Positions 8,385-52,646 of a DNA stretch of 64,000 nt are shown piece by piece. The stretch is from Microcystis wesenbergii NRERC-220 (lineage in GTDB: Bacteria; Cyanobacteriota; Cyanobacteriia; Cyanobacteriales; Microcystaceae). Every line of letters begins with the position of its first letter. Within the stretch, counting starts at the first letter, position 1. The translations under genes were made by a program, and so were the position numbers. The notes under the pieces were generated by a model. The model worked only from the letters and a program-made list of their open reading frames with translations. It did no database searches and was not told the DNA's origin. The stretch covers positions 4,414,001 to 4,478,000 of the forward strand of contig NZ_JAVSJA010000001.1 of the NCBI RefSeq assembly GCF_032027425.1. The letters run 5' to 3'.

Positions 8385-11300
8385 TGATCCCCCCTACCCC
8401 CCTTAAAAAGGGGGGAAATGTCTAAGGATTCTAGTTGTTGGTTTATCCAAGCGGTTGCCGTTTCTTCATCGGTTTCTATCGCTTTTTCTACTCCTATTTT
8501 AGCAATTTCTAAGAGTTGTTTCGATTGCCAATTAGTTTGATTAAAACTCTCAACTTTTAATTGAATTAAATTTCCAATATTTTCCATTATATTTTCAGAA
8601 AAAACTGGAATACTTAGCTTTTTTAAAGCTCCAAGACTTAAAAATGGATTAATTTGTCCAGTAGATGCTTTTTCAATGAGTAGCTTTCCTAACTGAGAAT
8701 TGAGAAAGCCTATTAAATAGTAAGGATTGAATCCAGATTTGAGGCGTAGCAATGCTACATCTTGATTGATATTAACCAATTTATTTAAGTTCTCAACAAC
8801 TGCGGCATTTCCAACTTTACCTTTAATTGTTATCAGAATATCTCCATTTTTTATCTGTGTTCGTTTTAGTTCGTTGTGATGATGGAAGAGTAAAATGCGT
8901 TTCTGCGTTTCATAATTTATTTGAAAATCATCAATATGTTCGGCAGTTAAAAACTTTACATCTCCAAGACTCAAATCATGTCTTAAAGGAGTATGACCAT
9001 TTGTAATGGTAACTAATATATCCTCAAGTTGAATAATATTTGAAGGATTAAGACTATTGATTTGTGCTAAAGCTTGATCATATTTCGGTTGATAATACTC
9101 AGCATCCAAGCGTCCAGAAGACAAAAAAGACTCAGAAAAACTCTTAACGGCGATGCTTTCTTCGGTGGGTTTCCAATCTTTTAAACCAAGTTCTGTTAAT
9201 AGTAAATCTTCAGCTTGTTGGTAGATTATTTTACTTTTTTTCACTTCTATAGATGATTGATTGACTAACCGTTCTATTATTTTCTGAAAGTAATCAGACA
9301 GAACGGGAAAAAGAATATTTTTTAAGTAGTAAGGTGCTACTTCAGGCTGTACGCCTCCATACATCCCCTTGTTAATTTGCTCTTTTCCATAAATAGTATT
9401 TAGAAAAACTGCTAGAAATGACTGGTTAATTATTTTGTTTCTTAAGATCAAAACGTGAGATGATGCAATCGCTTGTATTTCCTCATTAAAAATTAAAGTA
9501 TCTCCAAAATTTGCACCAGTTCTTGTGATCAGAATATCATTTTTTTTTATTTCATTCTTAGATAATTTTTCCGCATCTTCTAGAGATATATATACCTGAT
9601 TCGATAAATCGACTCTTAACGGACGTAAGTTTTGAGTTCTAAAAAACAAGACTCCTGATAAATCATCTTCTACATACTCTCGCTTAATTTCTGTTGGATG
9701 AATAATTATAGGTTGTGTTTCACTCAGTCTCATAGATTGGGGTAATTCATTAATTTTGTCCTCAATCTGAAAGTATTTTCTTTTAAAAAACTCACTATCA
9801 AATCGAAAATTAATATTATGCTCAAGTACCTGAATAAATGAAATTTCTGTTGCTTCCAACCTATCCATTAACTGCTGATATTTAACCGCATCAAAAGCTC
9901 CCCCCCTGTCCCCCTTATTAAGGGGGGTGGCGTTAGCCGGGGGGATCTCAAAAAAACTTAAATTCTCCTTTTTAGCAAACTCAATAAAAGCCTCAGCGAT
10001 ACCATCTTCCGTTAATCCATCATGATTAAAAAGATCATGATCCACAATCCAATGATTATGTTTATCTAAGAGAAAATCCCCCGAATCATCAGACACTTTA
10101 ACATAAACTTTTTCTCCAGAATTATCCTTGCCTGACTTCTGCATCGTCGCAAAAAAGATATTATAATCATCCTGACGAGGACAAAGTGCGCCTATTTTGG
10201 GATCATCATTCCATTTTTGCACCAATAACACCGAGGTTTTTGTTCCCGTATGGGGTTTAAAAGTATTACCATGTAATCCCACCACTGCCAAAATTCGACA
10301 TCTTTCGGCAATAAAATCCCGAATATTCTTATCAGAAGAATTATTAAAGCGTCCTTGGGGTAAAACTATCGCCATTCTTCCCCCCGGTTTCAAAAAGTCT
10401 AGATTGCGCTCAATAAATAAAATATCGCGTCCGACTCCCTTTGTTTTTTCAGCTTTATCTTTGGTTAGCTCATAACGAGCAATTATGCGCCGTTCTCTGA
10501 TATCACCCGCAAAAGGTGGATTTGCCATCAAAATATCGAATTGAAACTCTCGATAATCCTTACTGCCTTTGGGTCTAAGTTTTTTGAGACGATTAAATCC
10601 GGCAAAATAAACATTTTGCCAATCATCTTCTTTAGTAACCTCATCCCATAATTCATAATCTAGGGTGTTTAAATGTAGTACGTTTGTTTGTCCATCTCCA
10701 GCAATCAGATTGAGGGTTCGTGCTACCCTTACCGCTTTTTCATCAAAATCAATAGCAAACACCTTTTCTTCGACATATTCCTTACAACGGGGTGGCTTTT
10801 CTTCCAATGAAAATAAATGACTTGCTTCTAATCCCTCATCCTCTAGAATCTGCCGCCAAACATGAAAGATCGTATGTACTGGAAAACCCGATGAACCAGC
10901 TGCGGTATCAATCATATATTCATCTTCTTGGGGGTTAAGCATCTTCACACACAGATCAATCACATAACGAGGGGTGAAAAACTGTCCTTTTTCCCCTTTA
11001 CTGCTTTGATTGATTAAATACTCAAATGCTTCATCAATTACATCTAAATTAGAGTTAAATAGCTTCGCATCCTCCAACGATGACACACACACCGATAGAT
11101 GAGAGGGAGCAAGGCCAATCTTGACATCCTCACTAAATATACCTGGCCACTTTTTCTTAGCCCTATCAAACAAATCCTGAATCTTATTCTTGAGGGCGGC
11201 TTCCGTCTGTCCCGTATTGCGAAACTCTAGAAGGCGCGTCCTGCGGCGGTTTCCTTGCCCAGAATACCATTCATCGTAGAGCTTGGCAAAAATCAGCTTA

Positions 11301-11953
11301 AATAATTCCTCAAAGACATCTACCCCCGCATTTGCTAATACCTCATCTTCCATTTCTTCGATTAGCGTTTTCAGAGATTTATTCCTCTTCACCAACTTAT
11401 CATTGGCGATTAAATCATCTAAAGTGAACTTAATCTGGAGAATATCTGCTAGGGTTTGATTAGAGTTAGGGATATCTGAAATATCTTCAAAATAATTGGG
11501 ATCTTTGCGTTGATAATAGGAAATCTGATCGCCATTCGTCCAGACAGCCATCGGCGAACCTGTGCCGTTACAATAGGAACGTAGTTGTGCTTTTCCATCC
11601 TTCCACTTCGGACTCTTTACCTCTACCAAAATATAAACTGTGTTCAGGCGATCTTTGTCCATCACCGCAATATCTGCTCGTTTTACCTCCCTGCCAAAAT
11701 TCACCCCATACTCCACCTGAATGCGACTGAGAGGATAATTTAAGCGATCGCTTAAAACCCTTAAATATAATTGTCTAATCGCTTCTTCTGGGGTAAGTTT
11801 AATCTCTTTTTTCCGTACTAAGCAAATTGTATAGGGAGCTTCCCCATTTTTCGTCTTTTTCAGCGTAATTGTCTGCTCTAATTGCTCAATTTCCGTCGGC
11901 GTAAACTGGGACAACTTATAACTTGAGTCTTTGAGAATATCAGCTAATTTCAT
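8381..11953 (-). CDS. Single-chain restriction-modification-specificity protein (type IIG/type I-like fusion)
   Basis: A 1190-residue fusion. Residues about 20-165 form a type I HsdR N-terminal-like nuclease domain, with Asp in ADIAVMD and Glu-x-Lys in LVEVKSP near 111. Residues about 280-630 are an N6-adenine methyltransferase, with SAM motif MIDTAAGSSGFP near 348 and catalytic NPPF near 479. Residues about 700-1180 hold two HsdS-like target-recognition halves (EIKKNDILITRTGANFGDT and QIKNGDILITIKGKVGNAA), each followed by a helical spacer. One chain can therefore recognise, methylate and cut DNA. Two short GC-rich repeats have altered it: one in frame near residue 670, one replacing the native end SLGVKLI seen in tail copies by SLDISPLFKGGRGDQ. 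Confidence 0.88.
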   Translation of the reverse strand: MKLADILKDSSYKLSQFTPTEIEQLEQTITLKKTKNGEAPYTICLVRKKEIKLTPEEAIRQLYLRVLSDRLNYPLSRIQVEYGVNFGREVKRADIAVMDKDRLNTVYILVEVKSPKWKDGKAQLRSYCNGTGSPMAVWTNGDQISYYQRKDPNYFEDISDIPNSNQTLADILQIKFTLDDLIANDKLVKRNKSLKTLIEEMEDEVLANAGVDVFEELFKLIFAKLYDEWYSGQGNRRRTRLLEFRNTGQTEAALKNKIQDLFDRAKKKWPGIFSEDVKIGLAPSHLSVCVSSLEDAKLFNSNLDVIDEAFEYLINQSSKGEKGQFFTPRYVIDLCVKMLNPQEDEYMIDTAAGSSGFPVHTIFHVWRQILEDEGLEASHLFSLEEKPPRCKEYVEEKVFAIDFDEKAVRVARTLNLIAGDGQTNVLHLNTLDYELWDEVTKEDDWQNVYFAGFNRLKKLRPKGSKDYREFQFDILMANPPFAGDIRERRIIARYELTKDKAEKTKGVGRDILFIERNLDFLKPGGRMAIVLPQGRFNNSSDKNIRDFIAERCRILAVVGLHGNTFKPHTGTKTSVLLVQKWNDDPKIGALCPRQDDYNIFFATMQKSGKDNSGEKVYVKVSDDSGDFLLDKHNHWIVDHDLFNHDGLTEDGIAEAFIEFAKKENLSFFEIPPANATPLNKGDRGGAFDAVKYQQLMDRLEATEISFIQVLEHNINFRFDSEFFKRKYFQIEDKINELPQSMRLSETQPIIIHPTEIKREYVEDDLSGVLFFRTQNLRPLRVDLSNQVYISLEDAEKLSKNEIKKNDILITRTGANFGDTLIFNEEIQAIASSHVLILRNKIINQSFLAVFLNTIYGKEQINKGMYGGVQPEVAPYYLKNILFPVLSDYFQKIIERLVNQSSIEVKKSKIIYQQAEDLLLTELGLKDWKPTEESIAVKSFSESFLSSGRLDAEYYQPKYDQALAQINSLNPSNIIQLEDILVTITNGHTPLRHDLSLGDVKFLTAEHIDDFQINYETQKRILLFHHHNELKRTQIKNGDILITIKGKVGNAAVVENLNKLVNINQDVALLRLKSGFNPYYLIGFLNSQLGKLLIEKASTGQINPFLSLGALKKLSIPVFSENIMENIGNLIQLKVESFNQTNWQSKQLLEIAKIGVEKAIETDEETATAWINQQLESLDISPLFKGGRGDQ
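9899..9945. repeat. GC-rich short repeat inserted in frame in the restriction-modification gene
   Basis: A CCCCCC...TTATTAAGGGGGG...GGGGGG block that encodes PPANATPLNKGDRGGA between the methyltransferase and first recognition domain. The same style of repeat occurs at 7989-8022, 8384-8419, 39560-39590, 39836-39918, 44814-44852 and 46318-46382. The reading frame is preserved, so it adds a linker peptide. Confidence 0.8.
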
Positions 11954-42890: not shown

Positions 42891-44023
42891 AGATAAATTT
42901 CTCCTAATAAAACCGCTGCTTTTGCCCCCGTGACTTGCGGTAAATTACCGGGGAAATTGTGCCAGCGCCAATAGGCCAAGAGGGCAAAAGCGATCGCTTC
43001 TTTAAAATCGCTATTTAATCCTAGCTCATCGGTGGTCAAAAGCTTGACATTTGACCCCAAATGTGCTAAGAGTCGTTGCCGCAGGTAGGCATTACGAGCG
43101 CCACCACCGCAGAGCAGCACCTCCGCGGGCATTTCCGGCAAAAAGGTTTGATAGCTGTGGGCGATCGAAATGGCGGTTAAATCGGTTAAACTCGCCAACC
43201 AGTCGGCATCACTCAGGGAATAAGCTTGGGCATCCTGGTGCAATTGGGCTAGATAGGCGGGGCTAAATAACTCTCTGCCAGTGGATTTAGGGGGATATTG
43301 TTGAAAATAAGGCTCCTGTAGCCATTTATGAACTAATTCGGAGCAGGGTTGACCCTGGGCCGACCATTGACCGTTATGGTCGTAGGTTTGTTGGCCTTGG
43401 CTCAAAAATTGTACAGCCAAATCGATGAGGACATTGCCGGGGCCGGTATCCCAACCGAAAATGTTTTGCTGCCAATTTTCCGTTTTTCGGGGGGGTAGAT
43501 AGGTTAAATTGCCAATACCGCCGATATTTTGGACGCAGCGGGCTTTAGTGGGGTGAGAAAGCAGATAAGCGTCAATTTTCGGCACTAGGGGCGCACCGTG
43601 ACCAGCTTGGGCGATATCGGCAGCGCGAAAATTACTAATGGTGGGAATACGGGTATTTTTTGCGATCGCCGCTCCCCGTCCTAATTGTACCGTGTAACCG
43701 AGGCGATCGTTGGCGGGGGGTCGATGAAAAACGGTTTGACCGTGACTGCCGATTAATTGGGCTTTTGGGGTTTCTTTTTGGATATTTAAAGCGGCTTGGG
43801 CGAATTCTTCGGCGATATCATCATCTAAGCTGGCTAAAGCTTCAAGGTCGAGCTTTTCTCCCCCACAGACTTGTAAAATTGTCTCTCGTAATCGGGGGGA
43901 ATAGGGATAGGTTTCTCCAGCTAATAACTGCACCTGTGGAGATTCCACTGTACCGCTAATCTCCACTAAAGCGGTATCGATGCCATCCACCGATGTGCCA
44001 CTAATTAAACCGATAACTAACAA
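42887..44023 (-). CDS. anmK: Anhydro-N-acetylmuramic acid kinase
   Basis: A 378-residue kinase that phosphorylates and opens 1,6-anhydro-MurNAc, recovering cell-wall sugars. The N-terminus [20 protein letters not shown] is the family phosphate-binding start. [37 protein letters not shown] and [10 protein letters not shown] are conserved blocks. It lies between thiS (33 bp upstream) and the peroxiredoxin-like gene (4-bp overlap) on one strand. Confidence 0.95.
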
Positions 44024-44056
44024 GTTTTTTCCCTCAACTGTCGATTGTTGATTATT

Positions 44057-44266
44057 TTATCCCCCTCCGACAATAGTAACAATTTCTAATTTATCTCCCT
44101 CCTTGATTTCCGTGTTTTCCCAATACTGACGATGGAGGATTTCCCCGTTATATTCCACTGCAACTAACCGAGGATTCATGCCCAAATTTTCTAATATTTG
44201 CGGTAGTTTAGTTTCCGGTAAACAGGTTTGAGTTTTGCCGTTAATTTGCAGGGTTATTTCTGACAT
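44057..44266 (-). CDS. thiS: ThiS-type sulfur carrier protein
   Basis: A 69-residue ubiquitin-fold protein ending in GGG, the C-terminus that is adenylated and thiocarboxylated to give sulfur for the thiazole of thiamine. The start MSEITLQINGKTQ at 44266 matches family length; a 15-residue longer frame is unlikely. No thiG or thiF lies beside it, which is unusual outside cyanobacteria. A MoaD-like role cannot be excluded by sequence alone. Confidence 0.85.
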   Translation of the reverse strand: MSEITLQINGKTQTCLPETKLPQILENLGMNPRLVAVEYNGEILHRQYWENTEIKEGDKLEIVTIVGGG

Positions 44267-44565
44267 AGTTTTGAAAGTAAAAGGCTCTCCCGTACTTGTG
44301 GTGATAAGCAAAAGTTATCTAAGGCAGGGCTTAGGCCATAAGTCCCCACAGAACTACTAACCTAGGGTAATGTAGGGGCATAATGCTTGCGCCCACAATG
44401 TAATGTTCACCAATACTTTACACCATGATGTCGAGAGAGCCAAGTAAAAAGGGGTGATAGGGAGACTTTTCGGTGATCAGCTTCTGAAGGCAAGAGTCAC
44501 TCATACAAGAGGCAAAAGAAAGAATCTGGCAATTCTCCTCCCTAAAAAGAAGGTTAGAAACTAAG

Positions 44566-44761
44566 TAGGGTTTACTGAAAAAGTTTTTCGTGGGCTGTAG
44601 GGTGTCGGGTTTTAGCCATTTTCAGGGGGTTAATTACCTAATTTTCAGGGAAAAAGTATCTGAAATTTCCCCCCGATCACTCTCGGCTGGCACTTTTTGA
44701 TGGGAAAAAAGTCTAAAAGTCTTATCCAAGAAGATTTTTAGATTGATTCAGCCCACCCTAC
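44566..44761. repeat. MITE-like element, copy 2 (TTTACTGAA ends)
   Basis: TAGGGTTTACTGAA on the left and TTCAGCCCACCCTA on the right are imperfect inverted ends. The interior block AATTACCTAATTTTCAGGGA and the end TTTTTAGATTGATTCAG are shared with copy 1 at 19293-19576. No gene lies in 44267-44894. Confidence 0.8.
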
Positions 44762-44770
44762 TTAAGACTG

Positions 44771-44885
44771 ATACCATTTTTCATAAGTAATGGCAGAGAT
44801 GGTTAATCGCCCTCACCCCCACCCCCCCGACGTCGGGGGGGCAACGGGGGGTAAGATACCTGCCAAGAATAAAGAAAAATGGTAT
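44771..44885. mobile_element. 115-bp MITE with ATACCATTTTTC ends beside hemC
   Basis: Perfect 12-bp terminal inverted repeats ATACCATTTTTC and GAAAAATGGTAT. The interior holds the palindrome CCCCCCGACGTCGGGGGG. The right end lies 9 bp from the hemC stop, so its hairpin could act as that gene's terminator. Confidence 0.85.
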
Positions 44886-44894
44886 GATCACTGA

Positions 44895-45854
44895 TTATCG
44901 TCCCACTTCAGCGAAAATCTCGGCTAAAATCTCTCCAGCACCAGCCTCGCGCACTTTATGGGCTAAATCTCGTCCTAAGACTTCCCCATGGCTAGGATCA
45001 CCGCTAACCGAGTCCTTAATCAGGCGCTTACCGTCGAGACTAGCCACCATACCCGTTAAAGTTAGGATACCATCCTCGATCGCCGTATTCACTCCGATGG
45101 GAACTTGACAGCCCCCCTCCAACTCGCGTAAAAAAGCGCGTTCAGCATAGCATCTATCGCGACTAGGGGCGTGTTCCAACACTTTTAGGACTTCCAAAAC
45201 CTCCGCATCTCCATCGCGGCATTCTATCCCTAAAGCACCCTGTCCCACCGCATGGAGAGAAATTGCCGACGGAATAACCTGATGAACTCGATCGCCTAAT
45301 CCTAACCTTTCCAATCCCGCTACTGCCAGAATAATCGCGTCGTATTCTCCCGCGTCCAGTTTTGCCAGACGGGTGTTGACATTGCCGCGCACATCTTTAA
45401 AAGTCAGATGAGGATAATGGTAACGCAACTGGGCCAATCGCCGCAGGGAAGAAGTCCCCACCACCGCACCTTCCGGTAAAGTGTCTAATTGATAGTCTTG
45501 ATTTTGGCTATTTACCACCAAAGCATCGGCCGGATTAACTCTTTCGGTGACGCAACCCAAGATTAAGCCTTCGGGCAAATTAGTGGGCAGATCCTTGAGA
45601 GAATGGACGGCAAGATCGATCGATCTATCCAACATTCCCACTTCTAGTTCTTTGGTAAATAAACCCTTATCACCGATTTTCGCTAGGGCCACATCGAGAA
45701 TTTTATCGCCTTGGGTACTCATCGTCTCCACCTCAAACTGTCGATGGGGGTGGTGTTTACTCAATTCTGCCTGTACCCAATAGGTTTGTACTAGGGCTAA
45801 CTGACTTTTACGCGAACCGATACGCAGGGAACGAGGAGGACTAGAAACGGACAT
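44895..45854 (-). CDS. hemC: Porphobilinogen deaminase (hydroxymethylbilane synthase)
   Basis: A 319-residue enzyme that joins four porphobilinogens for haem and chlorophyll. The N-terminal [13 protein letters not shown] and [23 protein letters not shown] are family motifs. The dipyrromethane cofactor Cys is in [22 protein letters not shown] and [13 protein letters not shown] bind substrate and cofactor. It stands alone, with a MITE at its 3' end. Confidence 0.96.
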
Positions 45855-46429
45855 ATCTGAAGTAGGAATTTAACTAAACATCTATCGGACTGCTCGATCT
45901 AGACTATCCTGATCTCACCCCTGTTGAGTAATCACTTTCTAGGTTAGGCATAAATAGTTACATCTCTTAATATTTTTAGGCAAATAGGGGGATGGGGTGA
46001 TGGGGTTTTCGGGAAATAGTCATAGGTTTGTTTAATCTCTCCCAATCCCTTTACTATGGCCTCTTGCCTCATCTCAACAAGCAATTTAAATGTGCGGGCA
46101 GCTTATTAGAATGGGATGATGAGGTAAGAGTTTTTGCGGCTATAGGTTGGATTAAACATAGCAAAACCATTATTCCCCACTGACAGCAAAGCTGAAAGCC
46201 TAGGTTAAAATAGAGGGACAAACGTTGCAACAGGGTCTAACTAATGACAATGTTTGAACGGACAAATTGGCTAAGTAGCTGGTTATAATTAAATTAAAAA
46301 TGGATTTTAGGTTCGATCCCCCCTGCCCCCCTTGATAAGGGGGGTGCCGATAGGCGGGGGGATCCCCCTTAATAAGGGGGGCATCTGATAATTTTTAACG
46401 CCTACCTACTTAATTCAGGAGTTATTATT
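45855..46429. other. Repeat-rich intergenic region upstream of the kinase gene
   Basis: Contains the dispersed CTCAACAAGCAATTTAAATG repeat (46080-46113), a stop-limited 14-codon frame from 46243 (MTMFERTNWLSSWL, not recognised) and GC-rich repeats at 46318-46382. No supported gene. Confidence 0.6.
46318..46382. repeat. GC-rich short repeats (CCCCCCTTGATAAGGGGGG)
   Basis: Two stems, CCCCCC TTGATAA GGGGGG and CCCCC TTAATAA GGGGGG, separated by GGGGGGAT. Same family as the in-frame insertion at 9899-9945. They lie 50 bp before the kinase start. Confidence 0.85.
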
Positions 46430-48796
46430 ATGCTAGACCAAATGATGAGGATGTTAGAAGGGCAACAAATCGGCCCCTATCATCTTAATAAATTTCTCGG
46501 TGCGGGTGGTTTTGGTGGTGTATTTCATGCTAGTGAAATGGTCAGAAATACATCGGTTCAAGAAGTTGCTATTAAAGTTATCCCCGAAAGTAGCGATGAT
46601 AAATTAATTGAGTTAAAAAATGCCAGAAAGTTAGAACATTCTAATTTAATTAAGGCTTATTCAGTGGGGGAATTTACTTTTCTCAATACTGAAATGCTTT
46701 ATTTAGTGATGGAATTGGCACAGGGTAGCCTAGAAAATCACATCGCCAAAGGCGGTTTATCATCGGATGAAATTAAAAATATTACTGCTCAAATCGCCCA
46801 GGGCTTAAATTATCTTCATGGACAAAATAAAGTCCATCGAGATTTAAAACCGGGTAATATCCTCAAGGTTAATCAACAATACAAGTTAGCAGATTTTGGC
46901 TTAATTAGAACTTTAAATAACAAAAGCCACACTCAAACCGTCCACAATAGCGGTACAATTATTTATATGCCTCCCGAAGCCTTTAGGGGGGATATTTCCT
47001 CGGCTTGGGATCTGTGGTCATTAGGTATTATGTTAATCGAAATGACGACTAATCAACTTCCCTATAAGTTTAATAATGATATTCACCAGTTAATGGCCAA
47101 GGTGATGAATTGTGAGCTACAAATCCCCAGTTTACCGAAAGAGTTTAAACAGATTATTGAAGGGTGTTTGCAAAAAGATAGAAAACAAAGATGGACAGCA
47201 CAACAGGTTTTAAATGCCTTACAACCTGTGGGATGGAATTCTCCCCCGTCACCTCCACCAGCACCGGCAGCAGTCAAAAAGCCTGTTTCACCAATACCCC
47301 TAATTGCTTCACCTACTCTATTTACCGAAAAACTACCCAATCGAGTCACACTGGAGATGGTGAGCTTACCAGCAGGTGAGTTTCTCATGGGTTCTCCTGA
47401 CAGTGATCCCAATGCTGCAAGTGATGAAAAACCTCAACACCAAGTTAAAGTCAACAGTTTTGCGATTGGCAAATATCCAGTGACTCAGGCACAATATGAA
47501 GCGGTAATGGGAATCAATCCCTCTGAGTTTAAAAACAATCCCCAAAATCCGGTAGAACAGGTTAGTTGGAATGATGCTCAAGCTTTTTGTCGGAAATTGA
47601 GTCAAATAACAGGGAAAACCTATCGCCTACCGACGGAAGCGGAATGGGAATATGCTTGTCGTGCGGGGACTACTACTCGCTTTTATTTTGGTGATGATGC
47701 TAATCAGTTAGGAGATTACGCTTGGTATGACGGAAATTCTCAGGATAAAACTCATCCTGTGGGCCAGAAAAAGCCCAATGCTTGGGGACTCTATGACATG
47801 ATTGGCAATGTTTGCGAGTGGTGCGAGGACAATTGGCATGATAGCTATGAGAATGCGCCAAGGGATGGCAGTGCTTGGCTGATAAAGGATAAGGGTCTTC
47901 AAATAGCGCGGAGCAGTTGTTGGAGGCGCAGTCCATATAACTGCCGTTCCGCTTGCCGCGACCGCACCGGCCCCCATGCCAACTTCGACAACCTCGGTTT
48001 TCGGGTGGTGTGTGGTGTGGGGGGGGAAAGTATCGCTACTGTAACATCTACACCCCTACCTAAAGAATCGCCAACTCCACTGACAAACTTTATCGAAAAA
48101 CTGCCCAAGGCAGTAACACTAAAGATGGTGAGCTTACCAGCAGGTCAATTTCTCATGGGATCTGCTGACAGTGATAATGAAAAGCCTCAACACCAAGTTA
48201 AAGTCAACAGTTTTGCGATTGGTAAATATCCAGTGACTCAGGCACAATATGAATCGGTAATGGGAAAAAATCCCTCTCACTTTAAAAACAATCCCCAAAA
48301 TCCGGTAGAAAATGTTAGTTGGAACGATGCTCAAGCTTTTTGTCAGAAATTGAGTCAAATAACAGGGAAAACCTATCGCCTACCGACGGAAGCGGAATGG
48401 GAATATGCTTGTCGTGCGGGGACTACTACTCGCTATTATTTCGGTGATGATGCTAATCAGTTAGGAAATGACGCTTGGTATAACCGAAATTCTCAGAAGA
48501 CAACTCATCCTGTGGGCCAGAAACAGCCCAATGCTTGGGGACTGTATGATATGAGTGGCAATGTTTGGGAGTGGTGCGAAGACGATTGGCACGATAACTA
48601 TATCGGAGCGCCAAAGGATGGATCTGCGTGGCTTATCAAGAACGATAATCGTTCTCAGTCTCTTAAGTGTCTGCGCGGCGGTTCTTGGTACGACTACCCT
48701 AATCTCTGTCGTTCTGCCAACCGCAGCGGGGGCAACCCCCTCGGCGACTACATCAACTACGGTTTTCGGGTTGCGTGTGTCTCCCCAGGACTTTAA
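46430..48796 (+). CDS. Ser/Thr protein kinase fused to two FGE-sulfatase (C-type-lectin-fold) domains; candidate DGR variable protein
   Basis: A 788-residue protein. Residues about 15-270 are a Hanks-type kinase: glycine loop GAGGFGG near 24-30, VAIKVI, catalytic HRDLKPGN near 136, ADFGL near 153. A proline-rich linker follows (SPPSPPPAPAAVKKP). Two formylglycine-generating-enzyme-like domains follow at about 303-535 and 565-788 (MVSLPAGEFLMGS, AQAFCRKLSQITGKTYRLPT, EWEYACRAGTTTR, GNVCEWC / GNVWEWC). Such FGE domains in bacteria often serve as ligand-binding C-type-lectin folds. The last 40 residues of each domain differ strongly from each other although the rest is near identical. No membrane segment is seen. 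The ribosome-binding site is CAGGAG. Confidence 0.92.
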   Translation: MLDQMMRMLEGQQIGPYHLNKFLGAGGFGGVFHASEMVRNTSVQEVAIKVIPESSDDKLIELKNARKLEHSNLIKAYSVGEFTFLNTEMLYLVMELAQGSLENHIAKGGLSSDEIKNITAQIAQGLNYLHGQNKVHRDLKPGNILKVNQQYKLADFGLIRTLNNKSHTQTVHNSGTIIYMPPEAFRGDISSAWDLWSLGIMLIEMTTNQLPYKFNNDIHQLMAKVMNCELQIPSLPKEFKQIIEGCLQKDRKQRWTAQQVLNALQPVGWNSPPSPPPAPAAVKKPVSPIPLIASPTLFTEKLPNRVTLEMVSLPAGEFLMGSPDSDPNAASDEKPQHQVKVNSFAIGKYPVTQAQYEAVMGINPSEFKNNPQNPVEQVSWNDAQAFCRKLSQITGKTYRLPTEAEWEYACRAGTTTRFYFGDDANQLGDYAWYDGNSQDKTHPVGQKKPNAWGLYDMIGNVCEWCEDNWHDSYENAPRDGSAWLIKDKGLQIARSSCWRRSPYNCRSACRDRTGPHANFDNLGFRVVCGVGGESIATVTSTPLPKESPTPLTNFIEKLPKAVTLKMVSLPAGQFLMGSADSDNEKPQHQVKVNSFAIGKYPVTQAQYESVMGKNPSHFKNNPQNPVENVSWNDAQAFCQKLSQITGKTYRLPTEAEWEYACRAGTTTRYYFGDDANQLGNDAWYNRNSQKTTHPVGQKQPNAWGLYDMSGNVWEWCEDDWHDNYIGAPKDGSAWLIKNDNRSQSLKCLRGGSWYDYPNLCRSANRSGGNPLGDYINYGFRVACVSPGL
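47906..47995 (+). other. Candidate DGR variable region 1 (first FGE domain)
   Basis: Thirty codons encoding ARSSCWRRSPYNCRSACRDR then TGPHANFDNL, before the invariant GFRV. Aligned without gaps to region 2, 20 codons change the amino acid and the changes fall mostly in the first two bases. Flanking parts of the two domains are almost identical in DNA. Confidence 0.65.
48671..48760 (+). other. Candidate DGR variable region 2 (second FGE domain, gene 3' end)
   Basis: Thirty codons encoding LRGGSWYDYPNLCRSANRSG then GNPLGDYINY, before GFRVAC. Variable codons end in C or T (TAC, GAC, CTC, AAC, AGC, GGC, ATC), as expected if an AAC-rich template is copied with changes at adenines. Its place at the very 3' end is the usual site in DGR target genes. 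Confidence 0.65.
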
Positions 48797-48829
48797 CCCT
48801 TTGTTCTTTTGCTCTTTTGCCCTTTGTCT

Positions 48830-48858
48830 CCCGCCCTTAGGCGGGTCGATTTTTTTTA
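48830..48858 (+). terminator. Terminator of the kinase-FGE gene
   Basis: CCCGCC and GGCGGG form a perfect stem with a CTTA loop, followed by TCGATTTTTTTT, 34 bp after the stop. DGR target genes often carry a hairpin just after the variable region, so it may have a second role. Confidence 0.85.
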
Positions 48859-48863
48859 CCCTT

Positions 48864-48963
48864 GTTTCAAGGCTCTGCCTTGAAACACAATATTTAAGGC
48901 TCTGCCTTAAAGCAATATTCAGGTAGAACCTGAAGAGAGCGTTCCCAGGTAGAACCTGGGAAC
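48864..48963. repeat. Four consecutive small hairpins
   Basis: Stems at 48864-48886 (GTTTCAAGG/CCTTGAAAC), 48893-48911 (TTTAAGG/CCTTAAA), 48918-48934 (TTCAGGT/ACCTGAA) and 48941-48963 (GTTCCCAGGT/ACCTGGGAAC). The first two share a CTCTG-type loop and the last two share AGA-type loops, so they look like two duplicated pairs with compensating changes. Confidence 0.85.
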
Positions 48964-49051
48964 GAGATAACCTACGATCTACTTAATTAGAGTTTGCATA
49001 GAAGATTCAATTTTCAATTTCTGTCGATGGCGTTTGGAACTGAAACCCTTG

Positions 49052-49079
49052 GTAGGGACAATTCATGAATTGTCCCTAC
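49052..49079. repeat. 28-bp palindrome, GTAGGG...CCCTAC, second type
   Basis: Perfect palindrome with TTCATGAA at the centre. It matches the layout of the palindrome at 36176-36203 but with ACA/TGT in place of TTG/CAA. Its right half is the first part of the 33-bp tandem unit that follows. Confidence 0.85.
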
Positions 49080-49474
49080 ATTTTCGGAGTATAAATCATG
49101 AATTGTCCCTACATTTTCGGAGTATAAATCATGAATTGTCCCTACATTTTCGGAGTATAAATCATGAATTGTCCCTACATTTTCGGAGTATAAATCATGA
49201 ATTGTCCCTACATTTTCGGAGTATAAATCATGAATTGTCCCTACATTTTCGGAGTATAAATCATGAATTGTCCCTACATTTTCGGAGTATAAATCATGAA
49301 TTGTCCCTACATTTTCGGAGTATAAATCATGAACTATCCCTACATTTTCGGAGTATAAATCATGAACTATCCCTACATTTTCGGAGTATAAATCATGAAT
49401 GTCCCTACATTTTCGGAGTATAAATCATGAACTATCCCTACATTTTCGGAGTATAAATCATGAACTATCCCTAC
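49064..49474. repeat. 33-bp tandem repeat, about 12.5 units
   Basis: Units run CATGAATTGTCCCTAC then ATTTTCGGAGTATAAAT, twelve copies plus a final half. Later units read CATGAACTATCCCTAC; one unit has lost a T. The run gives an artificial repetitive frame (HELSLHFRSIN), but there is no ribosome-binding site, and the single-base loss breaks the frame. Not a CRISPR, because the whole unit is repeated with no unique spacers. Confidence 0.93.
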
Positions 49475-49640
49475 GTCTGGCTCTTCTCGACTTTGTGTGA
49501 TAAATTTAAATTATATAAGAGTGATCGATCTTTGTGTCCTTTGTGTCTCTGTGGTTCCTTCCACTCACTGCCCTAAGACTGTATCTTAGAATACATTTTA
49601 CCCACCAAACCCAAGAGATGCCACTGACCACCTTGCACCC

Positions 49641-50460
49641 CTACAAGGTTTCATCGGGATTAATGCCTAATTCTCTTAATCTTGCCGTTAATTGCTCAAT
49701 TTTTTGTAAAGCCAGTTCTTTTTGTTGACGTTCAGATTCTTTTTGCTGACGTTCGTATTCTTGTTGCTGTAAAGCCAGTTCTTTTTGTTGACGTTCAGAT
49801 TCTTTGGCCTGTTTCTCCAGAAGAGCGGCTTCCTCAGGTGTTGGGATTAACTGACCCCTAGGACTAAAATAACGCAATTTATCGGCGTATATCCCTAAAT
49901 ATAAGCCCAATTCTTCACTCCATAACCAACCCTTCGGCCTGGCTCAGGGCAAGCCTTGCTGATTGGGTTCAATCGGTTGATATTTTCCCCTAATTAACGT
50001 ATATCCTTCAAACTCTAAACTATAGGGGTCAAACCAGAAATAATCAGGAGTCCTAAATGTATTTTGATAAATTTCTTTCTTTTCTTCCCTATCAGTCTTA
50101 GCGGTACTTTCAAAAGAGGATTTCTATAATCACATTAGGATATTTTCCCTCTTCTTGCCATACTACCCAACTTTTCCGGTTTTGGTTTCTAGTTGTTCCC
50201 AATACTACAAAAAAGTCGGGTCCTCTAAAGTATTCTGATTTTTTCTGATTGGGACTGTAGTAGATGGTTAAATTCCCGGTTGCAAAGTAATCTTCTCTAT
50301 CTTGCCATAACCATTCTAGGCATTTTATCAATAAAATAATCTGAGTTAGATGTAAATTACTTTCCAATGGCGGTTCATCACTCCAAAATTCGCCCTTGGG
50401 GAAGATTATCTCATCTTTTTGGGCGGTTTGGCTAGGGGATAGGGGTTGAGTTGTAGTCAT
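49641..50460 (-). pseudogene. Broken Uma2-family (DUF820) endonuclease-like gene
   Basis: The first part (50460 to 50110) reads MTTTQPLSPSQTAQKDEIIF to KYPNVIIEILF, matching the N-terminal half of Uma2 proteins. A one-base shift at about 50110 leads to ESTAKTDREEKKEIYQNTFR, then PDYFWFDPYSLEFEGY. A short GC-rich insertion near 49945 breaks it again before GLYLGIYADKLRYFSPRGQL and the coiled-coil tail of repeated ESERQQKELALQ. Uma2 genes are very numerous in Microcystis; this one is dead. Confidence 0.82.
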
Positions 50461-50485
50461 GGTTATCTGCTATGAATAATAAGCT

Positions 50486-50516
50486 GTCCGTGTATTTAAA
50501 CTGCTTGTTGAGATGA
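50486..50516. repeat. Dispersed CTCAACAAGCAATTTAAATG-type repeat, copy 3
   Basis: Minus-strand CATCTCAACAAGCAGTTTAA then ATACACGGACAGCTTA, similar to the copies at 37916 and 46080. It lies between the broken Uma2 gene and the next gene. Confidence 0.7.
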
Positions 50517-50649
50517 GACAAGGGGCAACAGTAAAGGTATTGGCTAAGATTCAGCTAATCTAAGGATAGGCGGTTAAAATGCGTCTTAGCCTATTATTTG
50601 TGTTAATCTCATCTTTACAGATCAAAACCCTCAATCGTCTAAGGAGACA

Positions 50650-51573
50650 ATGGCCGCCAATTCTCGGAATAAATCGCCCGTTTTTCTCGGCTGTTCCGGC
50701 AGGATCGCTATTTTTTGCCTCTTGATGTTATTATCGGCGGCAATAGGCTGGTTAATCGGGAAACAGTGGGTTAAACACAGCAATCAAACCCAAACCGTTA
50801 AACCCGTTTTTGCCACGGAGGAAAATAATTTTAATTCTGCCACAGATCGGGCATGGCAACGGAAAGCCGAGATGAGAAAGCGCCGTCTAGAGTTGGGAAT
50901 TGATGGTCAGTTTTTTAAAAATCTCGTCAATGAATTGTTTAGCCTCCGCTATGGGGATATCAAAGAGGAAAAACAGAAACAGGAACAAAGAGATATTTTA
51001 GCAGCAGAAATCCTCGATCGCTTAGACCGTCTCGATTCTGGCACTAGAGAAGCATTAGGTAGCTACGATGAGCAACAGCGAGAAAAATGGCGAGAACAAG
51101 TGAATCAGTTACGTTTAAGCAGTAGAGTCCTTAATTTACTCACTGATACTGCTTTTTTTCGGCTATTTCCCGAATTGACAGAAAGACCAAATTTTGATAG
51201 CGGCTTAGGTCAACTATGGAGTGGTTTGGCCTGGAATCAGTTACAATCTTTACAGTCGGGCCTATCCTACCAAGCGATCGAAAGTTTAGACGCGGGGGGA
51301 GAGGAAGTGATCGAGGCAATTCTCAGCGAGGGACAAGGAAAAGCCTATGCAATAAAATTGCGTTCCAGTGATCGGTTAGACTTAAATTTAGAGACGGAAG
51401 GCGAAGTTTTACTATCTTTCTACTCTCCCACGGGTAATATTACCCTTTTAGACAAGTCTAGCGATCGGCAATGGTCCGGTCAATTACCCGAAGAGGGATT
51501 TTATGAATTAGTTATTCTCCCCCAATCTTCTACCCCCGTTCACTTTCGCTTGCAGTTAAAAGTAAGTCAATGA
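50650..51573 (+). CDS. Membrane-anchored protein with C-terminal PPC-like domain
   Basis: A 307-residue protein. One N-terminal membrane helix (IAIFCLLMLLSAAIGWLIG) is followed by a long charged helical region (residues about 75-165, QRKAEMRKRRLEL to EREKWREQVNQLR-like) and a C-terminal beta domain (YAIKLRSSDRLDLNLETEGE, SGQLPEEGFYELVI). That domain resembles bacterial pre-peptidase C-terminal (PPC) folds. Probably facing the periplasm. The function is unknown. A GGAGAC ribosome-binding site supports the start. Confidence 0.75.
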   Translation: MAANSRNKSPVFLGCSGRIAIFCLLMLLSAAIGWLIGKQWVKHSNQTQTVKPVFATEENNFNSATDRAWQRKAEMRKRRLELGIDGQFFKNLVNELFSLRYGDIKEEKQKQEQRDILAAEILDRLDRLDSGTREALGSYDEQQREKWREQVNQLRLSSRVLNLLTDTAFFRLFPELTERPNFDSGLGQLWSGLAWNQLQSLQSGLSYQAIESLDAGGEEVIEAILSEGQGKAYAIKLRSSDRLDLNLETEGEVLLSFYSPTGNITLLDKSSDRQWSGQLPEEGFYELVILPQSSTPVHFRLQLKVSQ

Positions 51574-51584
51574 CTTTAACCGTC

Positions 51585-51640
51585 AGGAGACAGTTATCAG
51601 TTATCAGTTATCAGTTATCAGTTATCAGTTATCAGTTCAC
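51585..51640. repeat. AGTTATC heptamer tandem repeat
   Basis: Six to seven AGTTATC units, then degenerate ones up to about 51665. Further CTTCCCCA and AATTTATAATTCATA simple repeats fill the gap to glyQ at 51771. Confidence 0.85.
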
Positions 51641-51770
51641 TGTTTACTGTTTACTGATCACTGAAAAGCTCCCCACTTCCCCACTTCCCCACTTCCCAAT
51701 TTATAATTCATAATTTATAATTTATAATTCCCACTTCCCCAACCCCTAATCTGCTTTTTTACTTTTTCCC

Positions 51771-52646
51771 ATGTCTCTAACTTTCCAAGCTGTTATCGCT
51801 AAATTAAATGAATTTTGGGCCGATCGCGGTTGTTTAGTTGCTCAACCCTATGATACAGAAAAAGGTGCGGGAACCATGAGTCCCCACACTTTTTTAAGGG
51901 CAATTGGTCCGGAACCTTGGGCAGTTGCCTATGTGGAACCCTGTCGTCGTCCTACGGATGGCCGTTATGGCGAAAATCCCAATCGTTTTCAGCATTACTA
52001 TCAATATCAAGTCCTAATTAAACCCTCTCCTGATAATATTCAGGAAATCTATTTAGACTCCCTGCGGGTGTTAGGAATTCACCCAGAAGATCACGATATT
52101 CGCTTCGTGGAAGATAACTGGGAATCTCCCACCCTCGGTGCTTGGGGTGTGGGTTGGGAAGTGTGGTTAGATGGTATGGAAATCACTCAGTTTACCTACT
52201 TTCAACAGTGTGGGGGCATCGATTGTCGTCCCGTGGCGATCGAAATTACCTACGGTTTAGAAAGATTAGCCATGTATCTGCAAGATGTAGAGGCAATTAA
52301 TAAAATTCAATGGAATGAAAATATCCTCTACGGTGATATTTTTCTGCAAAATGAAATCGAACAATGTACCTATAATTTTGAGGCTTCTAATCCTGAGTTA
52401 TTATTTAGTTTATTCAGTTTATATGAACAGGAAGCCAAACAATTAATCGATCGCTCTCTGGTGATTCCCAGTCTAGATTATGTTCTCAAATGTTCCCATA
52501 CTTTTAATTTACTCGATGCTAGAGGTGTGATTGCTGTAGCCGAAAGAACCCGTTATATCGGCAGAATTCGCAATTTAGCTCGACAGGTTGCTCAATTGTA
52601 TTTACAGCAACGAGAAGCTTTAGGTTTTCCCCTACAAAGGGTTTAG
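51771..52646 (+). CDS. glyQ: Glycyl-tRNA synthetase alpha subunit
   Basis: The 291-residue catalytic-domain subunit of the bacterial alpha2beta2 glycyl-tRNA synthetase. [57 protein letters not shown] and [14 protein letters not shown] are family motifs. The beta subunit gene glyS is not next to it, as is usual in cyanobacteria. It converges on the str operon across a shared terminator. Confidence 0.97.

What the first reader, a model, noticed from the sequence alone, without database searches (positions are those of the whole stretch)
46430..48796. Kinase-FGE protein with two hypervariable segments shows the fingerprint of a diversity-generating retroelement
The two FGE domains are near identical in DNA over long stretches, but their last 30 codons before GFRV (47906-47995 and 48671-48760) differ at 20 amino acids without a single gap. 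In almost all changed codons the third base is kept as C or T and the first two bases vary (TGC/AAC, TTC/TAC, GAC/ATC, CTC/TAC, GGC/AAC, ACC/GGC, CAT/CTC). Unchanged codons sit where a C-type-lectin scaffold must be fixed (TGG, TGT CGT TC, GCC, CCC). This is what adenine-directed mutagenesis of AAC codons would leave, and FGE/C-type-lectin domains are established DGR targets. A protein kinase carrying two such domains would be a signalling receptor with a changeable sensor. No RT or template lies within the window.
Basis: partly seen in the sequence, partly recalled or inferred. Interest (0 to 1): 0.88.

Follow-up and report, generated by a model that had tools for sequence, protein, structure and literature searches.

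The report
Orphaned target of a retroelement mutator
A bloom-forming cyanobacterium carries a signalling-kinase gene whose sensor end was rewritten by a mutation-making retroelement that this genome does not have, although some sister strains still carry it, one of them on a plasmid.

Summary
The gene at 46430-48796 (Ser/Thr kinase plus two FGE/C-type-lectin domains) is real, and the DGR reading holds with a correction. The own genome (100% complete) has no DGR: RT matches are group II-like, Avd matches are below cut-off, and the 5 and 8 matches to two sibling templates all lie in FGE genes. RT, Avd and template together occur in 4 of 12 Microcystis genomes searched, one on plasmid p1FD4. Against G002's template, segment 2 has 16 substitutions in 96 bases: 15 at adenines, none at third codon positions; its 3' acceptor and hairpin are kept. 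Segment 1 is eroded and lacks the hairpin. Segment 2's core is base-identical to a segment in G002's related gene, so it looks inherited and moved by recombination, with no sign of present change. Kinase-lectin targets, orphans and tandem variable domains are each published. Segments of this kind in RT-less Microcystis phages did not turn up in my paper searches.

The parts
46430..48796 (+). Orphaned DGR target gene: Ser/Thr kinase - FGE - FGE, 788 aa
   Evidence: ORF; Pfam
46478..47215 (+). Protein kinase domain, residues 17-262; glycine loop, AIKV lysine, HRDLKPGN, DFG present
   Evidence: Pfam PF00069 E 2.1e-53; motifs located, their meaning recalled
47354..48010 (+). FGE/CLec domain 1
   Evidence: PF03781 at G000:C1:4461354-4462010
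47909..48004 (+). Variable segment 1 (VR1), eroded: scaffold RGGSW reads RSSCW
   Evidence: 16/28 adenine against 11/68 other changes on the best gapped TR; no hairpin found in the 170 bases after it
48122..48775 (+). FGE/CLec domain 2
   Evidence: PF03781 at G000:C1:4462122-4462775
48674..48769 (+). Variable segment 2 (VR2): DGR-type copy of a template like that of G002
   Evidence: 15/31 adenine against 1/65 other changes, 0 of 32 third positions changed
48761..48800 (+). IMH-like 3' acceptor, target version GGACTTTAACC (the G002 template reads GTACTTTCCCT)
   Evidence: Alignment; 88 of 90 bases after the VR match the G002 target
48830..48845 (+). GC hairpin followed by a T run; retrohoming hairpin and/or terminator
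   Evidence: -8.1 kcal/mol as DNA, z -3.9; also scores as an intrinsic terminator

Best explanation
The gene is an orphaned remote target (variable protein) of a cyanobacterial DGR. Shown: its second FGE/CLec domain ends in a copy of a template repeat that still lies beside an RT in a sister Microcystis genome, changed almost only at template adenines; the acceptor sequence and hairpin 3' of it are kept; a DGR-type RT, a template and Avd were not found in this genome. Inferred: in this lineage or in a donor of the segment, a DGR reverse-transcribed the template with errors at adenines and wrote the copy into an FGE gene, giving the kinase a new ligand-binding face; the DGR is now absent, the variant was kept, and segments have since been inherited and moved between similar FGE modules by ordinary recombination. 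VR1 is an older, eroded segment or comes from an unsampled template. The protein most likely works as a cytosolic sensor in which two lectin-fold domains gate a Ser/Thr kinase; ligand and output are unknown.
For: VR2 against the G002 TR: 15/31 against 1/65, 0 of 32 third positions; none of 200000 draws limited to codon positions 1 and 2 reaches 15 adenines, and within changed codons alone it is 15/22 against 1/14, p 3e-4. The G002 DGR target gives 13/31 against 0/65 on the same TR. Target-type acceptor and hairpin kept. RT, Avd and TR together in G002, G003, G004, G010, one set on plasmid p1FD4. In the own genome RT matches are group II-like, Avd matches sub-cut-off, TR matches all in FGE genes. 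VR2's core is identical to one in G002 while the FGE bodies are 93.6% identical; two VRs shared by the five-FGE genes of G000 and G011, one in a shifted position.
Against: VR1 does not show a clean signature. One non-adenine change in VR2 (G to C) is unexplained except by drift of the template. G002 owns RT and TR and still keeps the same allele, so freezing may not be due to loss of the DGR. No transcription or retrohoming was measured. A plasmid missing from the own assembly cannot be excluded. The hairpin may be only a terminator. The no-transmembrane call rests on a simple hydropathy scan.
Confidence: 0.86

Rival explanations
1. The gene is an active DGR target: a DGR on a plasmid missing from this assembly, or one visiting from neighbours, still rewrites VR2 in this lineage.
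For: Acceptor and hairpin are intact; DGRs of this clade sit on plasmids in Microcystis and other cyanobacteria; targets acting in trans are published (PMC10907252, passages).
Against: No RT, TR or Avd in the own genome; same-species genome G011 lacks them too. Of four loci paired by best match between G000 and G011, two have identical segments, one differs by one residue, and the fourth differs over the whole FGE domain. VR2's core is shared base for base with G002.
Confidence: 0.08
2. VR2 was imported ready-made: this lineage never hosted the DGR, and recombination with a relative brought in an already diversified FGE module.
For: Segments do move between domains and genes: VR2 of the window equals VR1 of the G002 gene; shared alleles occur across genomes. 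This is compatible with the best explanation and only fixes where the mutagenesis happened.
Against: Eleven of 14 FGE domains in the own genome carry such segments, which is easier with a past resident DGR; the own genome keeps the left flank and a truncated copy of the target gene of the G002 DGR locus. Neither point is decisive: G005 has that target gene with no DGR RT.
Confidence: 0.3
3. No retroelement: diversifying selection plus gene conversion among FGE paralogues made the two segments differ.
For: Many similar FGE modules exist and segments are moved by recombination.
Against: It does not explain 15 of 16 changes at adenines of a repeat lying just after an RT gene, with 0 of 32 third positions changed, nor the difference between target and template versions of the acceptor.
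Confidence: 0.01

Closest known systems
Cyanobacterial remote DGR variable proteins of CLec-kinase type (Vallota-Eastman et al. 2020, PMC7517822: abstract, sections 5, 6 and 7, and passages seen)
   Same: Kinase plus C-terminal CLec with a VR near the 3' end; remote from the DGR; an orphan with remnant TR homology and no nearby RT (all3226 of Nostoc PCC 7120) is described there
   Different: Two tandem FGE/CLec domains; no RT or TR anywhere in the genome (all3226's genome has two DGRs); Microcystis is named there only for orthocaspases and in a reference
Thiohalocapsa PB-PSB1 DGR targets (Dore et al. 2024, PMC10907252: passages seen)
   Same: Tandem VR-containing CLec domains in one protein; targets diversified in trans
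   Different: N-terminal vWA domain in place of a kinase; RTs present in that genome
Microcystis plasmid p1FD4 and Fischerella plasmid AP018301 DGRs
   Same: Same template scaffold and the machinery this gene lacks: target, Avd-type gene, RT, TR
   Different: They hold RT and TR; the window genome does not
Treponema denticola variable protein 1 (PDB 2y3c)
   Same: FGE-type fold family by sequence, E 2.7e-33; its C-terminal segment aligns with VR2; that this segment is its VR is recalled
   Different: No kinase in the solved chain; from a different phylum

Membership tests
DGR variable protein (target) | VR differs from a template almost only at template adenines | tested here: met
   VR2 15/31 against 1/65 on the TR of sister genome G002; VR1 not clean (16/28 against 11/68)
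DGR variable protein (target) | Acceptor (IMH) distinct from the template's IMH*, with a hairpin downstream | tested here: met
   VR2 only; VR1 has no hairpin in the 170 bases after it
DGR variable protein (target) | VR in a CLec/FGE-type fold | tested here: met
   By sequence: PF03781, PDB 2y3c and FGEs; the structure model was too poor to use
DGR variable protein (target) | Active mutagenic retrohoming | not testable with these tools
   Needs sequencing of clonal populations or an assay; shared alleles argue against recent activity
Complete DGR in this genome | DGR-type reverse transcriptase | tested here: not met
   Four RVT_1 places; L001 over the group II cut-off, both fragments with group II as best match; L002 not scanned with NCBIfam, but it ends in the same tail as L001
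Complete DGR in this genome | Template repeat | tested here: not met
   5 and 8 own matches to two Microcystis TRs, all in FGE genes
Complete DGR in this genome | Accessory protein Avd | tested here: not met
   Two matches of 27.9 and 24.0 bits against a cut-off of 80
Hanks-type Ser/Thr kinase | Kinase domain with catalytic motifs | tested here: met
   PF00069; motifs located (motif meaning recalled)
Formylglycine-generating enzyme (as an enzyme) | Catalytic residues of FGE | not tested
   Only the domain family was matched; catalytic site not checked

The most novel reading that the evidence does not exclude
In Microcystis, DGRs are transient visitors, at times plasmid-borne, that write new binding faces into a standing set of FGE/CLec sensors and then leave. 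The segments are kept as stable alleles, shuffled by recombination among similar tandem modules, and also held by Microcystis phages: Ma-LMM01 gp037 and MaMV-DC gp040 carry the same kind of segment with no RT in the phage. Sensors in the host and free lectin domains in the phage would then be two sides of one recognition contest.
Probability: 0.3. Interest if true: 0.78.

Novelty: new member of a known kind. Interest (0 to 1): 0.52.

Why it matters
It shows, base by base, a DGR product outliving its mutator. All 12 Microcystis genomes searched hold places matching the templates, but only 4 hold RT, TR and Avd together. That makes it testable how often DGR-made sensors are fixed rather than re-mutated, and whether plasmids deliver the mutator. 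The phage-borne segments hint at what the sensors may be for.

Tried and rejected
Searching the own genome with VR2 gave 21 matches up to E 10; the best after VR2 itself is 73% over 109 bases, in an FGE gene, and no TR was seen (its short low-scoring matches were not each examined). A degenerate TR-like pattern hit two variable segments and one non-VR FGE end, C1:925474. The viral-contig scan with the G002 RT found nothing and genome contigs gave 3 relatives, none Microcystis; both scans use short patterns, so this is no evidence of absence. The structure model of FGE2 was poor (mean pLDDT 58, under 50 over residues 169-238), so I made no fold search. The test 'internal VRs decay faster than terminal ones' was not significant: median non-adenine rate 0.066 (n 14) against 0.046 (n 48), p 0.087, with L037 and one row with 7 gaps left out of the 64. 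A hairpin pattern follows 31 of those 48 terminal VRs and 0 of 14 internal ones. One search aligned 64 FGE ends from the stretches I had, not all that exist in the 12 genomes; one row (L072 8693) was cut short by my end pattern, and one search gives its ungapped value, 16/28 against 0/71. G001's weak RT match (49% over residues 309-351) is counted as a remnant at most. Gene conversion without a retroelement was rejected for VR2 (see rivals).

Full report
What is there. The ORF 46430-48796 (788 aa) has a Pkinase domain (residues 17-262) and two FGE-sulfatase stretches. Kinase motifs are present and a hydropathy scan shows no membrane-like stretch. Each FGE domain ends in a GC-rich, NNC-codon segment followed by GFRV.

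Is there a DGR in this genome? None was found. RVT_1 has four places. One full-length RT exceeds the group II cut-off and the two fragments have the group II model as best match; the other full-length RT was not scanned that way but ends in the same tail as the first. The Fischerella DGR RT (AP018301) finds only the two full-length places in G000, at 33% and 31% identity. Own matches to two Microcystis TRs number 5 and 8, and all 13 lie in FGE genes (read). The two Avd matches are far below cut-off.

Is there one in siblings? Yes. Of 12 Microcystis genomes (own included), four (G002, G003, G004, G010) have full-length DGR-type RTs at 67-75% identity to the Fischerella RT, Avd over cut-off and a TR just after the RT. 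In the region read from G010's second contig, 10,001 of 10,001 bases match p1FD4, a 43,611-base plasmid of Microcystis aeruginosa FD4, and the contig has that length. Partial RTs lie in G010, G003 and G007. The same-species genome G011 has neither RT nor Avd matches. Where G002 carries its DGR, the own genome keeps the left flank and a truncated target gene (181-aa ORF), followed by ORFs that read as transposases (my reading of the translations). G005 has that target gene although it has no DGR RT. Whether RT and TR were ever at this place in the own lineage is not shown.

The decisive comparison. Against the G002 TR (L074 6228 onward), VR2 of the window has 16 substitutions in 96 bases: 15 of 31 adenines (7 to T, 7 to G, 1 to C) and 1 of 65 other bases; no third position of 32 is changed (Fisher p 3e-8; the TR was the best of four by identity at equal length). 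Limiting draws to codon positions 1 and 2, none of 200000 reaches 15 adenines; within changed codons alone the contrast is 15/22 against 1/14, p 3e-4. The G002 target gene itself has 13/31 and 0/65. After the VR the window carries the target version of the acceptor (GGACTTTAACC), not the template version (GTACTTTCCCT), and 88 of 90 bases match the G002 target, hairpin included (fold). The hairpin with its T run also scores as an intrinsic terminator, so its role in retrohoming is inferred from known DGRs.

VR1 is different: 16/28 against 11/68 on the best gapped TR and 19/31 against 14/65 on G002's, with no hairpin after it. It is an eroded segment or comes from an unsampled TR.

The wider set. 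In the own genome 11 of 14 FGE domains carry ends of this type: two here, five in one 1672-codon frame at C1:2634817-2638641, and four single ones. Eight are clean (non-adenine change rate 0 to 0.074); three are weak: VR1 (11/68), the first repeat of the five-FGE gene (6/62, 5 gaps) and its fourth (13/64). Pooled over the 11: 166/311 adenines against 54/745 others. One FGE end without the signature (L037) gives 19/31 against 21/65; its p of 7e-3 shows that p alone is a weak criterion, and the low non-adenine rate is what discriminates. L036 and L038 did not match the segment pattern. One own VR (C1:1069601) fits the p1FD4 TR at 71 of 71 non-adenine sites, with 20 of 28 adenines changed, although its 3' flank differs from p1FD4's.

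Frozen and shuffled. VR2's core is base-identical to the first VR of the G002 kinase-FGE-FGE gene, while the bodies are 93.6% identical. G001 and G005 kinase genes share another VR base for base, as do G000 and G001 (L030, L158) and G000 and G011 (L120, L122). The five-FGE genes of G000 and G011 share two VRs, one in a shifted repeat position. Of four loci paired by best match between G000 and G011, two have identical segment proteins, one differs by one residue, and the fourth differs over the whole FGE domain. Synteny in the stretches fetched: G001 and G005 share the downstream flank of the window gene and G009 the upstream flank; G002 shares only the 33-base repeat array and a 141-base piece, so G002's gene is a close relative whose position I could not show to be the same. 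Because G002 owns a matching RT and TR and still keeps this allele, the freezing need not be due to loss of the DGR.

Function (inferred). In line with the authors' hypothesis for CLec-kinases (PMC7517822 section 7), the lectin domains would sense a ligand or select a substrate and gate the kinase. Dore et al. (PMC10907252, passages) propose antigen sensing for cyanobacterial DGR targets; p1FD4 has MoxR, TIR and SAV_2336-type genes next to its DGR, which fits that. Among the ORFs listed around the window gene (43000-52000) I recognise no such neighbours.

Phages. Ma-LMM01 gp037 and MaMV-DC gp040 encode FGE proteins annotated 'kinase' that end in segments fitting the p1FD4 TR: 15/28 against 4/71 (one gap) and 16/28 against 5/71 (p 4e-7 and 3e-7). 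Between these two phages identity is 393/432 before, 79/101 within and 202/208 after the segment. None of the six phage records searched has an RVT_1 match at E 1. DL02 45L (12/26 against 5/70) is weaker and MaMV-CH01 42L (14/28 against 11/71) is not clean; Mic1 and the 41L/46L proteins gave no segment by my pattern. Capture from hosts and mutagenesis in trans by a host DGR are both open.

Literature. A full-text search of the held library for DGR with Microcystis gave 5 papers. In PMC7517822 Microcystis is named only for orthocaspases and in a reference; PMC8934634 reports only group II RTs in NIES-843 (passages); the other three I saw in the listing only. Ma-LMM01 with 'formylglycine-generating' gave 0 papers, and with 'retroelement' 1 paper on small RNAs, seen in the listing only; DGR with 'cyanophage' gave 15 papers, 8 listed, none opened. 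Supplementary tables could not be read, so Microcystis may be among the published 31 genera.

Verdict. Ordinary in kind, since kinase-CLec remote targets, orphan targets and tandem VR domains are each known; unusual in state, because this is a DGR product with its acceptor intact in a genome without the mutator.

Noticed in passing
L226:5001-5741 (Ma-LMM01 gp037), L227:5055-5792 (MaMV-DC gp040), L229:6529-7086 (MaMV-DL02 45L): FGE proteins of Microcystis phages, two of them annotated 'kinase', end in DGR-type variable segments fitting the p1FD4 template; no RVT_1 match in the phage records.
   Followed up: partly
G000:C1:2634817-2638641, minus strand (L130): One open frame of 1672 codons with five tandem FGE domains, each with its own variable-type end; the counterpart in same-species G011 shares two of the five.
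   Followed up: partly
G002:C1:2999566-3000006 (L152): A variable-type FGE end lies in an open frame listed as 10870 codons.
   Followed up: no
L073:3022 and L073:6665 (G003:C9): Both target copies beside the G003 DGR lack the VR core between TTGG and GGTAGTCTGC, and an inverted repeat of about 20 bases flanks the place; deletion or assembly collapse.
   Followed up: no
49063-49474: 33-base tandem array, 12.5 copies, downstream of the gene; the same unit lies downstream of the G002 relative.
   Followed up: no
L211:25692-37309 (plasmid p1FD4): DGR next to MoxR ATPase, SAV_2336-type target and TIR-domain genes; a second Avd gene at 10966-11319 of the plasmid.
   Followed up: no
NZ_CP025929.1 36458-37198 and 32818-33753 (L212): Microcystis NIES-2481 plasmid p1 holds an FGE gene and a partial DGR-type RT with no annotated feature under it (70% of the query, 75.7% identity).
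   Followed up: no
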